NCBI GenBank assembly: GCA_015207585.1 | Contig: JADEWQ010000002.1 | Span: 62,001-126,000, forward strand | DNA: 64,000 nucleotides | DNA from: Pleurocapsales cyanobacterium LEGE 06147 | Lineage (GTDB): Bacteria; Cyanobacteriota; Cyanobacteriia; Cyanobacteriales; Xenococcaceae | Direction: 5' to 3' | Shown here: piece after piece, positions 43,107 through 46,514 of the stretch | Numbering within the stretch: the stretch's first letter is position 1 | Layout: each line of letters opens with the position of its first letter | Program-made: the position numbers and the translations under genes | Notes under the pieces: model-generated | The model's database searches: none | What the model saw: only the letters and a program-made list of their open reading frames with translations | Told to the model about the DNA's origin: nothing

Positions 43107-44051
43107 CTATTTAACCACTGGAACTTTTGCTGTTACTAGAGGAACCACTTCTGAATCAAAACTATTTTCCGATGAAGCACTACCTGCTAATGCCATCCAA
43201 GAGAAAACAAGTACGGGAATAATACCCAACACAATTCCTAATAAGACTGGAAGATAAATCCCTGCAGCTAAACTCAGTATCGTAGCAAAAGCAAAATTAC
43301 TCAAATAAATTGCTACAGGTAATCCCAATCGAGCGCGAGATAAGTTAAGGGGTTTAACTTGCCAAAGAAGGGTAGCTATGGTCATAAAGACGATACCAGT
43401 TCCCATCCAGCCAACAAAATTTTGATAAGGCATACCAAAGAAAGCACCAGGCTGTTCCCAAATCCAGAAAGGAAGATGAGTCTGACTCATTGCCGGATCG
43501 AGAACGAAATCCCAGGAGGTTAACAACAATGCACCAAAAGCGATCGCAGCTATTTTAGCCAACCAACTTTTGATTTTTATACTTTCTAAACCTGCACGAG
43601 CAATTATATAAGTACTCAGTCCCAGATAAAACCAAGATAGAGGAATAGTAAAAGGAACCAAACCAGCTATTTTATAACCCAAACCACTGAGATAGCGATA
43701 ATGACCGAAAGGAAATCCCGTGCTAGTGCCTAACAATTCACTTCCTAAAGACACAAAAATTGCTGGAAGCATAAATGCTAACCAGTGCCAAATCCCCAGA
43801 GTCCGATAAGCATAAACAGCTACAGCTGCCATTCCCAATACCATGTAAACAACACCCCCACCAGCCATTGACCAGCTAAAAGCAGTCTGTCCCCAGGGGA
43901 ATTCTGACAATTTTGCCATAAAATCCTGATTGGGTAAGACTAATAAAATTCCTGCCAACCCAAAAGCCATCGATAAAATGTGACCGATGAGAAGATAAAA
44001 CATAAATTTCTGGATATAGTTTTGCTTATTGGCACTAATCAATGGTTTCAT
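43107..44051 (-). CDS. cruF: CruF, carotenoid 1',2'-hydratase
   Basis: 314 residues and seven to eight hydrophobic segments. Diagnostic stretches are GTSTGFPFGHYRYLSGLGYK, LVPFTIPLSWFYLG, DFVLDPAMSQTHLPFW and FFGMPYQNFVGW, defining the DUF422/CruF family. CruF hydrates the acyclic end of gamma-carotene or lycopene on the way to myxoxanthophyll. Its frequent partner cruG is not in this window. Monocistronic. Confidence 0.88.
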   Translation of the reverse strand: MKPLISANKQNYIQKFMFYLLIGHILSMAFGLAGILLVLPNQDFMAKLSEFPWGQTAFSWSMAGGGVVYMVLGMAAVAVYAYRTLGIWHWLAFMLPAIFVSLGSELLGTSTGFPFGHYRYLSGLGYKIAGLVPFTIPLSWFYLGLSTYIIARAGLESIKIKSWLAKIAAIAFGALLLTSWDFVLDPAMSQTHLPFWIWEQPGAFFGMPYQNFVGWMGTGIVFMTIATLLWQVKPLNLSRARLGLPVAIYLSNFAFATILSLAAGIYLPVLLGIVLGIIPVLVFSWMALAGSASSENSFDSEVVPLVTAKVPVVK

Positions 44052-44202: not shown

Positions 44203-45705
44203 TTAAATATTAAACCACTGAGCAACAGTCACGGGTAAGGGTAACAGGATCGTGACGAGTAAAGCTAGTGCTAGCAGTCCGGATAAATCTCGCCATCGAT
44301 CTAGTTCTGTCACATCATTGAGGGCTGGTTGGTCGATTAGGGGAATTAACCACAAGATAATTGCCCAGATCCAAAAGTGAGGATGTAGCAAAGCAAACAA
44401 GACAGCTACAAAGCGAGTTATTTGCCCCACAATCATTGCTGTTTTTTGACCGAATACAGCATGGACGATATGACCGCCATCTAGTTGTCCTACAGGCATT
44501 AAATTTAGTGCGGCAATCCACAGTCCGATATAACCAGCTATTGCCAAGGGATGAAGATTGACTCCCATTCCTGGTTGTAATTGGCTGCCAAGGGCTATTT
44601 TACCAAGCACTGCTAGTAAGAAAGAAAAGCGCAGGTCGAGAGCCTCAAAATTGATAATATTAGAATCTTGCAAAGGTACTAATTCTGATAAAGACAAACC
44701 CCACAATAAAATAGGCAAAGTAGCTAACAACCCAACTAGGGGACCGACAATCGATACATCAAAAAGAGCCTTGCGATGGGGAAATGGCTCTTGCCGTTGC
44801 ATAAAAGCTCCCAAAGTGCCGATAAAAAAAGGAAAAGGAATGAAATAGGGAAGAGTAGTGCGAATATGATAATGACAAGCGGTTAAGTACTGACTCAGTT
44901 CGTGAATACCCAAGATGAAAATTAGTGCCAAACTATAAGCAAGTCCAGAAAAAATGAGACTGGGATTAGATTCTAACTGTTCCCAAGTAATACCACTCAT
45001 CTCTAAGCCAACTTGGGTAGTGGTAATCAGAGCAATAAATAATAATGCTAAAGCCAAACCGGGACGAGTAATTTTTTTGGTTGTCTGCCGCTCTTTTTGC
45101 TGAACTTGTGGATTGGGAACGAGGGCAAAAAAAGGTTGATCGCGAAAACTTTCTTGAAAAATCAAGAAAAAGCGATCGCCAAAAGCTCGTTCAACATTAA
45201 TTTTTATCTTTTGATAAGCTTCTTCCGGTACGGTTTTTAGTTTTCCGCGACACAAAATTGCTTGGGGACGATAGTCAATATGCTGAAGATAATATATATT
45301 CCAGGGAAAGCAACTACGTAGTGCTTTCTCTTCTGTAGAGTTAATCGGGCGTACCTGAGACAATTCCTGAGAGGTGTTGGGCTTGGCTGTATCTAGACTG
45401 GGCCTAGTTTCAGCTTCAAGATTATTAACTCTTTTTAACTGTTCGGCTTCAGTTTTGTTGGGTCTTCCTCTCTGAATCAACCATCCATATAACAGGGGAC
45501 AAATAACAAAGGGAAGAACAATTAAGACTAGAGGTAATGGTCGCTCTTCACCAAAAAAGGCAGCCCAAGCAGTCCAAATAAAAGCTGGAAGCATCATTAC
45601 TAGCCAGCACAACCAGACTGGCGTTTTCGTAATTTTACTTACGCTACGCTGAACGAGATAATAAGTAATCAAACTGAGTAAAATGAGAATTAACCAAAGT
45701 TTCAT
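44203..45705 (-). CDS. Site-2 protease-like (M50) membrane protein with altered active site
   Basis: 500 residues. The C-terminal half has the M50 membrane core: HYHIRTTLPYFIPFPFFIGTLGAF, QEPFPHRKALFDVSIVGPL and the second motif NLMPVGQLDGGH. The zinc motif should read HExxH but here is H268-E-L-S-Q272, with glutamine in place of the second histidine; the codon is CAG. Close relatives (cyanobacterial EGY-type) keep HExGH. So this is probably a non-catalytic or altered member. The N-terminal half is membrane-anchored plus a polar domain. Confidence 0.85.
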   Translation of the reverse strand: MKLWLILILLSLITYYLVQRSVSKITKTPVWLCWLVMMLPAFIWTAWAAFFGEERPLPLVLIVLPFVICPLLYGWLIQRGRPNKTEAEQLKRVNNLEAETRPSLDTAKPNTSQELSQVRPINSTEEKALRSCFPWNIYYLQHIDYRPQAILCRGKLKTVPEEAYQKIKINVERAFGDRFFLIFQESFRDQPFFALVPNPQVQQKERQTTKKITRPGLALALLFIALITTTQVGLEMSGITWEQLESNPSLIFSGLAYSLALIFILGIHELSQYLTACHYHIRTTLPYFIPFPFFIGTLGAFMQRQEPFPHRKALFDVSIVGPLVGLLATLPILLWGLSLSELVPLQDSNIINFEALDLRFSFLLAVLGKIALGSQLQPGMGVNLHPLAIAGYIGLWIAALNLMPVGQLDGGHIVHAVFGQKTAMIVGQITRFVAVLFALLHPHFWIWAIILWLIPLIDQPALNDVTELDRWRDLSGLLALALLVTILLPLPVTVAQWFNI

Positions 45706-45779
45706 TTCAGCTATCCGAATCTGCTTTAAGGAGCTTATTTGTTGGTATCCTGCTTCGGGAAGATTATCAAAATATAAGA

Positions 45780-46514
45780 ATGCAACCAGATTTCTCAGAA
45801 CACCACACTCTTAATGTGCCCCAAAACTCTAAAGAGATCATCCCACGTTCTGATGGTATTACCAAACCGCCCCGCTCTATTTTGCCAGGAATATTCGCTT
45901 TTGCGCCTAATCGGGACACATTGGGAGCTACTGCTTATTTCATTGTAAATAAAAGCGGTAATATTCTTCTGGACTGTCCTGCTTGGAATGAAACCAATCA
46001 GAAATTTGTAAACGAGCGTGGAGTTCGTTGGTTGGCGATTTCTCATAGGGGAAGTCTTAGCAAACGGATTAGTCAAATACAAGAAGCTTTGTATTGCGAA
46101 ATAATCATCCAGGAACAAGAAGCTTATCTTTTATCAGAAGTAAAAGTAACTACTTTTAGCGAAAAATTAGCTCTCACCCATGAAATCGAACTAATTTGGA
46201 CTCCCGGTCATTCTCCAGGTGCTTCTTGCCTCTATTGGCAAGACCATGGCGGCGTTCTCTTCTGTGGTAGACATTTACTACCAGACTCCTCGGGTGAAAT
46301 TGTTCCCTTACGCACGGCAAAAACTTTTCACTGGTACAGACAGTTACGAAGTGTCCAAAAATTACGCGATCGCTTTACACCCGACACTCTCAGCTATATT
46401 TGTCCGGGTGCTAATACAGGTTTTTTACGGGGTAAAGGTTATGTAGATCGAGCTTATCAAAGATTAGCAGCGATCGATTTAGATGCTTTACGAACAGTAG
46501 AAGCTTGGATTTAA
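45780..46514 (+). CDS. Metallo-beta-lactamase-fold protein lacking canonical metal motif
   Basis: 244 residues with the MBL fold order. The usual HxHxDH is replaced by ISHRGSLSK around residue 88, and the later metal Asp by FCGRHLLP. One H remains in TPGHSPGAS. From memory, cyanobacteria have a conserved family with a similar THRGG-type variant, so loss may be an ancestral trait and not damage. It is divergent from the protease-like gene, with 74 bases between. Confidence 0.8.
   Translation: MQPDFSEHHTLNVPQNSKEIIPRSDGITKPPRSILPGIFAFAPNRDTLGATAYFIVNKSGNILLDCPAWNETNQKFVNERGVRWLAISHRGSLSKRISQIQEALYCEIIIQEQEAYLLSEVKVTTFSEKLALTHEIELIWTPGHSPGASCLYWQDHGGVLFCGRHLLPDSSGEIVPLRTAKTFHWYRQLRSVQKLRDRFTPDTLSYICPGANTGFLRGKGYVDRAYQRLAAIDLDALRTVEAWI

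What the first reader, a model, noticed from the sequence alone, without database searches (positions are those of the whole stretch)
44203..45705. Site-2 protease with HELSQ instead of HExxH
The second zinc histidine is glutamine (codon CAG at 44890-44892). The other motifs (PYFIPFP, LDGGH) are intact and the frame is open. A pseudoprotease or altered metal centre is possible, as in plant EGY3-type proteins.
Basis: partly seen in the sequence, partly recalled or inferred. Interest (0 to 1): 0.55.

Follow-up and report, generated by a model that had tools for sequence, protein, structure and literature searches.

The report
Cyanobacterial membrane protease missing zinc ligand
A cyanobacterial gene for a membrane-embedded zinc protease has lost one of its zinc-holding residues, and the same gene has lost its zinc site separately many times in other cyanobacteria while still being preserved, so the protein probably does a job that does not need cutting.

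Summary
In detail: on the minus strand, Gln272 (CAG, 44892-44890) replaces the second zinc histidine in an open 500-residue frame with PYFIPFP and LDGGH intact. It is not a private oddity. The protein belongs to the Synechocystis Slr0643 group (primer matching), found in 381 of 388 genomes of its order. HExxH is missing in 49 of 247 group sequences, 33 of 208 genera, needing at least 24 changes on a motif-masked tree. The sister paralogue keeps it in 68 of 70, and in 24 of 24 motif-less genomes read. Motif-less copies stay under purifying selection (median dN/dS 0.11) and are predicted to keep the S2P fold. Arg appears in 13 of 19 events changing the first His. The usual head-to-head neighbour is an MBL-fold protein whose metal motif is also degenerate. 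Best reading: a conserved, probably non-cutting S2P pseudoprotease that has arisen repeatedly. Inactivity is untested, and a weak metal site in this protein is not excluded.

The parts
44203..45705 (-). Slr0643-type site-2 protease homologue, 500 aa, HExxH changed to HELSQ
   Evidence: ORF; Pfam PF02163 50 bits over cut-off 27.2; AF2 model pLDDT 92.3, pTM 0.84; best VIA match MjS2P 3b4r Z 10.7 over 186 residues
44890..44904 (-). HELSQ (residues 268-272); Gln272 codon CAG at 44892-44890 in place of the second zinc His
   Evidence: column is His in all motif-intact genera by definition, 33% His in motif-less genera
44830..44850 (-). PYFIPFP loop (residues 286-292), intact
44470..44484 (-). LDGGH (residues 408-412); Asp409 is the third zinc ligand by homology, intact
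45103..45363 (-). soluble domain near the N terminus (about residues 115-201), strongly conserved also in motif-less copies; resembles the periplasmic domains of PulL/EpsL/XcpY
   Evidence: VIA matches Z up to 6.8 and 7.2; Cys132, Phe133, Gln148, Gly154, Arg178 nearly invariant in both sets
44332..45063 (-). S2P membrane core (about residues 215-458)
   Evidence: range aligned to MjS2P 3b4r
45780..46514 (+). head-to-head neighbour, MBL-fold protein whose HxHxDH place reads HRGSLS; conserved partner across the order
   Evidence: PF00753 30.8 bits; present beside the S2P gene in 52 of 58 loci; motif degenerate in all 52 aligned relatives
45706..45779 (.). 74-base gap between the two divergent start codons, presumably both promoters
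   Evidence: coordinates; function inferred

Best explanation
The gene encodes a functional but probably non-cutting member (pseudoprotease) of a widespread cyanobacterial S2P/M50 group whose Synechocystis member is Slr0643. Shown here: the zinc site is lost repeatedly in this group but hardly ever in the sister paralogue; the rest of the protein stays conserved and is predicted to fold as an S2P; every motif-less genome whose paralogue I read keeps that paralogue intact. Inferred: the conserved job of the group does not need peptide hydrolysis. The protein most likely still takes transmembrane helices or membrane-protein clients into the S2P cleft, with the soluble N-terminal domain as a docking module, and stabilises, sequesters or presents them, as plant EGY3 is reported to stabilise chloroplast proteins. 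With no need for catalysis the zinc ligands can drift; where the metal goes, a basic residue often appears, perhaps to balance the charge of Glu269 and Asp409. In the window genome the loss looks recent: only one ligand has changed and the second shell is intact.
For: HELSQ confirmed. Orthologue group in 381 of 388 order genomes. HExxH lost in 49 of 247 sequences, 33 of 208 genera, 21 of 54 families; 41 of 217 and 28 of 188 genera when the 30 loci, picked largely for low scores, are left out. Tree without motif columns: 24 changes among the 247, and 26 motif-less clades in all 277 including one unclear sequence, L290. In the window's own family three separate losses; holding the motif-less rows together is rejected (p-AU 0.0004). 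Paralogue control: HExxH in 68 of 70, and 24 of 24 in genomes whose orthologue lost it. Purifying selection: median dN/dS 0.108 in motif-less pairs (92 pairs with dS under 2; L290 was in this set), 0.138 intact, 0.104 paralogue. Conservation falls mainly at His268 (0.27), His272 (0.33), Pro322 (0.36), His412 (0.45), Thr284 (0.55), Glu269 (0.67), while N-terminal-domain and C-terminal signature residues stay. Both the window protein and a REMVR protein are predicted as S2P folds with high confidence. A catalytically dead S2P (SpoIVFB E44Q) can still be purified bound to its substrate, and the SpoIVFB preparations had no zinc (passages of PMC11486902).
Against: No activity or metal measurement exists. 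Motif-less lineages have longer root-to-tip paths (median 1.85 against 1.40), so some relaxation is real, and conservation drops in more than the three ligand columns. dN/dS pairs are not independent and dS is high. In about 85% of genera the motif is intact, so proteolysis is evidently useful there, and a purely non-catalytic role does not explain that. The Slr0643-type gene read in a Synechocystis has an intact motif (HELSH), and the acid phenotype of Slr0643 has been linked to SigH activation (PMC4284730 passage), which fits proteolysis too. Client binding is inferred only.
Confidence: 0.72

Rival explanations
1. Altered but working metal centre: His268, Asp409 and Gln272 (or water) still hold zinc or another metal and the protease cuts slowly or cuts another substrate.
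For: Only one ligand changed; Glu269, Asp409, PYFIPFP, Pro322 and His412 kept. Several other lineages also change only the second His (HEFAR, HEWTR, HELSR, HELGS).
Against: Most other losses hit the first His or Glu and bring Arg or Lys (19 of 26 events), which do not normally ligate zinc, so the group as a whole tolerates full loss. PMC10202637 (passage) says that mutations in the motifs reduce S2P activity.
Confidence: 0.14
2. Decay: the gene is on its way to a pseudogene in each lineage, with the intact paralogue or other M50 proteins covering its role.
For: Longer branches in motif-less lineages; 7 of 388 genomes have no match under the cut-off, one of them holding only fragments (G073).
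Against: Frames are open and full length, dN/dS about 0.11 after loss, thirteen g8 genomes with mean identity 77% share an invariant QKF in the motif.
Confidence: 0.09
3. Sequencing or assembly error at one base of the CAG codon.
For: Draft genome in 244 contigs; no other genome of the genus was on hand.
Against: The motif is missing in about a fifth of the group and in 16 of 25 other sequences of the same family, so a real change is expected often.
Confidence: 0.04

Closest known systems
Slr0643 of Synechocystis sp. PCC 6803 (S2P homologue needed for acid acclimation; Zhang 2012, not read, cited in PMC4284730)
   Same: Same orthologue group: 55% identity to the window protein in a Synechocystis-like genome, G272; the published slr0643 left primer matches that gene with 2 of 20 mismatches, whereas primers of the other three published S2P genes match the other three M50 loci best
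   Different: The gene in G272 keeps HELSH; the window has HELSQ
Plant EGY3 pseudoprotease
   Same: S2P/M50 homologue without HExxH; reported to lack activity and to stabilise other chloroplast proteins (passages of PMC10978774)
   Different: [quoted passage not shown] Here the loss is bacterial, recurrent and varies within one orthologue group. Kinship with EGY3 not tested
Sll0862-type paralogue (EGY-like S2P with intact motif)
   Same: Same architecture, 33% identity, in the same genome; identified as Sll0862-type by an exact primer match in G272
   Different: HExxH kept in 68 of 70; LDGGR instead of LDGGH
MjS2P (3b4r) and SpoIVFB (8vjm)
   Same: Predicted fold of residues 213-465
   Different: Both have HExxH (8vjm is an E44Q variant); the cyanobacterial protein has an extra N-terminal membrane part and a soluble domain
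Rhomboid pseudoproteases (iRhoms, derlins)
   Same: Precedent for intramembrane proteases kept after losing catalysis (starts of abstracts in the listing)
   Different: Different catalytic type and fold (recalled)

Membership tests
S2P / peptidase family M50 (homology) | Match to Peptidase_M50 profile over its cut-off | tested here: met
   PF02163 50 bits, cut-off 27.2
S2P / peptidase family M50 (homology) | S2P membrane fold | tested here: met
   AF2 model pLDDT 92.3; MjS2P 3b4r Z 10.7, rmsd 5.0, 186 aligned
Active S2P metalloprotease | HExxH zinc motif | tested here: not met
   HELSQ
Active S2P metalloprotease | LDG motif with third ligand Asp | tested here: met
   LDGGH at 408-412
Active S2P metalloprotease | Zinc binding and cleavage | not testable with these tools
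   needs biochemistry
Slr0643 orthologue group | Closer to the Slr0643-type gene than to the Sll0862-type paralogue | tested here: met
   55% against 32% identity in G272; gene identity by primers
Slr0643 orthologue group | Divergent MBL-fold neighbour, as in most of the group | tested here: met
   52 of 58 loci; 45780-46514 in the window
EGY3 | Lacks HExxH while keeping the S2P fold | tested here: met
EGY3 | Common descent with plant EGY3 | not tested
   no plant sequences in the collections used

The most novel reading that the evidence does not exclude
The ancestral and universal function of the Slr0643 group is non-proteolytic (a membrane client-binding or stabilising role, together with a divergently encoded MBL-fold partner that has itself lost its metal motif), and peptide cleavage is an optional extra that cyanobacteria have shed some two dozen times; when zinc is lost, an Arg or Lys often takes over its electrostatic role between Glu269 and Asp409. 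The gene pair would be a membrane module built from two former metalloenzymes and a bacterial counterpart of EGY3.
Probability: 0.3. Interest if true: 0.75.

Novelty: new variant of a known kind. Interest (0 to 1): 0.6.

Why it matters
S2P pseudoproteases are described, in the papers seen here, only for plants (EGY3). A bacterial orthologue group in which active-looking and motif-less forms coexist, with about two dozen independent losses, is a natural experiment that separates catalytic from non-catalytic roles of an intramembrane protease. It bears on a phenotype already tied to this gene in a genetic model (acid acclimation in Synechocystis), so whether that role needs proteolysis becomes directly testable by changing one residue. 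It also warns against annotating every Slr0643-type gene as a protease.

Tried and rejected
Considered and rejected: (1) a private oddity of this genome: the census shows a group-wide pattern. (2) One shared loss in the window's family: rejected by the AU test. (3) A compensating histidine shift: I saw no alternative HExxH in the motif region printed; not tested structurally. (4) A conserved operon with the downstream carotenoid gene cruF: cruF was found beside the orthologue in none of the 58 loci tested, whose flanks are mostly 1.5-2 kb. (5) PHROGs and PADLOC gave no hit, NCBIfam none for this protein, phmmer against PDB sequences none.

Weak points kept in view. The charge-compensation idea: loss of the acid at 409 goes with events that bring no Arg/Lys (3 of 7 against 1 of 19, Fisher p 0.047), but this is post hoc, the events were assigned by hand, two of the 13 Arg clades are mixed, one event (L290) is of uncertain group, and the p-value for Arg enrichment depends on the null (6.5e-6 at 0.2, 3.7e-4 at 0.286, 0.012 at 0.4). 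The tree of 277 is FastTree with long branches; the clustering of motif-less sequences in f48 and in f31 with f22 may be real or attraction, so the count is on the low side if they are separate. Outgroup rooting did not isolate the paralogues as one clade; motif-less clades were counted on that rooting. The script ended in an error after printing the dN/dS results; its last comparison (g8 paralogues) is not used, and 23 paralogue rows could not be codon-mapped and are absent from the paralogue dN/dS. The paralogue G058 (GEIAR) was read after the tree was made and is not in it. In G272 only the left slr0643 primer matches well; the right one has 5 of 18 mismatches, so the Slr0643 assignment also rests on elimination among four genes. 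Absence of the finding from print rests on searches of an open-access library only; Chen and Zhang 2010 was not held, and Zhang 2012 was not looked up, though both are likely places for an earlier remark.

Full report
What is there. The finding's coordinates hold an open frame of 500 codons on the minus strand, ATG at 45705 and stop ending at 44203; the plus strand is closed by many stops. The motif is HELSQ with codons CAC GAA CTG AGT CAG, the Gln codon at 44892-44890. PYFIPFP and LDGGH are intact. Pfam places it in Peptidase_M50 at 50 bits over a cut-off of 27.2; NCBIfam and PDB sequence searches gave nothing. The AlphaFold2 model built from 94 orthologue sequences has mean pLDDT 92.3 and pTM 0.84. 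Its membrane core aligns best with the solved site-2 proteases MjS2P (Z 10.7, 186 residues, rmsd 5.0) and SpoIVFB (Z 10.2), and residues 115-201 resemble the small periplasmic domains of PulL/EpsL/XcpY (Z up to 6.8).

Paralogue and orthologues. The window genome (G000, 6.23 Mb in 244 contigs) holds a second EGY-like protein at C228:44333-45706 with HEIGH and LDGGR, 33% identical, besides several other M50 matches. Named relatives are Xenococcaceae, Pleurocapsa, Hyella and similar cyanobacteria. Two groups separate clearly by score: close orthologues of the window protein, and the paralogue group near E 1e-50. In a Synechocystis-like genome (G272, identified only through primers) four M50 genes stand over the cut-off. 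Published qPCR primers for the four Synechocystis S2P genes point to them one to one: sll0862 left exactly on the paralogue, slr0643 left with 2 of 20 mismatches on the orthologue of the window gene, sll0528 left with 1 of 22 and slr1821 left with 3 of 18 on the other two. So the window gene belongs to the Slr0643 group. Slr0643 is reported as essential for acid acclimation, probably through SigH (PMC4284730, passage seen; the original paper was not read).

Census of the motif. The orthologue group is in 381 of 388 genomes drawn from the order. Of 156 genomes drawn from the class, 20 have neither group at E 1e-20, 16 of them from one family, f34, with genomes of 1.6-3.0 Mb. I read 247 distinct orthologue-group sequences (at least 200 bits to the window protein) from 208 genera and 54 families. 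HExxH is intact in 198 and missing in 49; 33 genera and 21 families show a loss. One batch of 30 loci was picked largely for low scores; without it the figures are 41 of 217 sequences and 28 of 188 genera. In the window's own family 16 of 25 other sequences lack the motif, elsewhere in the order 17 of 154, elsewhere in the class 15 of 67. Dropped before the count: exact duplicates, three fragments (L217 twice, L149 once). Replacements include HELSQ, RELVH, RELCN, QKFSH, RELGR, YEVGH, HELGS, YAVSR, REMVR, HKSVH, KDVVK, RSLGC and others. Asp409 is kept in 44 of the 49. The paralogue group is the control: 29 of 30 and 39 of 40 keep HExxH. The exceptions are L290, which may be a divergent orthologue, and G058 (GEIAR). 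In 24 genomes that lost the motif in the orthologue and whose paralogue I read, the paralogue is intact in all 24, of 48 genomes with a loss. Fisher tests of lost against intact in the two groups give p below 0.001, without correction for relatedness.

Independence. On a FastTree of all 277 sequences with motif columns masked, the fewest changes of state are 24 within the orthologue group and 26 overall; 26 clades are wholly motif-less, counting L290. In a careful tree of the window's family with ten outgroups there are three separate losses: the window, two copies inside genus g3, and the g4 plus g8 clade. Forcing all motif-less rows into one clade is rejected (p-AU 0.0004).

Still under selection. 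Same-family pairs with dS below 2 have median dN/dS 0.108 when both lack the motif (92 pairs), 0.138 when both have it (681 pairs) and 0.104 in the paralogue (50 pairs). Pairs are not independent. The thirteen g8 genomes share mean identity 77% yet all carry Q, K, F in the motif. Against this, motif-less sequences have longer root-to-tip paths (1.85 against 1.40), so some relaxation is present. Column by column, conservation drops most at His268, His272, Pro322, His412, Thr284 and, less, Asn401, Thr398 and Glu269, while the N-terminal domain (Cys132, Phe133, Gln148, Gly154, Arg178) and the C-terminal signature (Arg472, Asp473, Gly476, Pro489, Pro491) hold. A REMVR orthologue (L182) is predicted as confidently (pLDDT 90.3) and matches the same solved S2Ps (Z 10.1).

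A pattern in the replacements. Of 19 events that change His268, 13 include Arg; 19 of 26 events bring Arg or Lys into one of the three positions. With the chance of Arg set at 0.2 to 0.4 the p-value runs from 6.5e-6 to 0.012. Losses of the acid at 409 lie mainly in events without a new basic residue (3 of 7 against 1 of 19, p 0.047). This suggests, no more, that a positive side chain replaces the charge of zinc.

Neighbourhood. The gene is divergent from an MBL-fold gene at 45780-46514, 74 bases away. The same neighbour was found beside the orthologue in 52 of 58 loci; the downstream cruF gene in none. In all 52 aligned relatives the place of the usual MBL metal motif HxHxDH (motif recalled) reads THRGGIGK or similar, so this partner too appears to be a former metalloenzyme. 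A functional link is inferred from the conserved arrangement only.

How it most likely works. Shown: repeated zinc-site loss, continued constraint, retained predicted fold, intact paralogue, conserved neighbour. Inferred: the protein binds membrane clients in its S2P cleft without cutting them and stabilises or sequesters them. This is plausible because a dead S2P, SpoIVFB E44Q, can be purified with its substrate and preparations lacked zinc (PMC11486902, passages), and because EGY3 is reported to stabilise chloroplast proteins without activity (PMC10978774, passages). For the window protein alone, a weak metal site from His268, Asp409 and Gln272 is not excluded.

Place among the known. It is a homologue of S2P/M50 but fails the HExxH test that defines active members, so it is filed as a motif-less member of the Slr0643 group, not as an active protease. 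It may work like EGY3; kinship was not tested. [quoted passage not shown] My searches of the open-access library listed no title or abstract reporting cyanobacterial S2Ps without HExxH; subscription papers were not covered.

Noticed in passing
45780-46514 (+) and neighbours in L024-L080: MBL-fold protein head-to-head with the S2P gene, with the HxHxDH place reading a conserved THRG[GA]IGK-like stretch in the 52 relatives aligned; probably a conserved pseudo-hydrolase.
   Followed up: partly
L341 (G058:C1:3255140-3256525): The only clear paralogue-group sequence without HExxH reads GEIAR, again with a basic residue.
   Followed up: no
L030 and L085 (G016), L031 (G009): Genome G016 has two motif-less orthologue copies (RELVH, RELAH); one is identical in protein to the copy in G009.
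   Followed up: no
L100 and L101 (G304): Two orthologue copies in one genome, both with intact HELSH.
   Followed up: no
L217 (G073:C183) and G073:C101: Orthologue in pieces in a draft genome of genus g29, motif reading QKLGY; may be decay or assembly.
   Followed up: no
L133, L134 (G260, G269): Genomes of only 1.4-1.5 Mb keep this gene, with HEFSH intact, which speaks for a core role.
   Followed up: no
L276 (G446), L286 (G471): Two sequences keep HExxH but lose the third ligand Asp (LGGG, LSGG), a second route to a broken zinc site.
   Followed up: no
43107-44051 (-): cruF (gamma-carotene 1'-hydroxylase, NCBIfam NF045693, 468 bits) lies 151 bases downstream on the same strand; not conserved next to the gene elsewhere.
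   Followed up: yes
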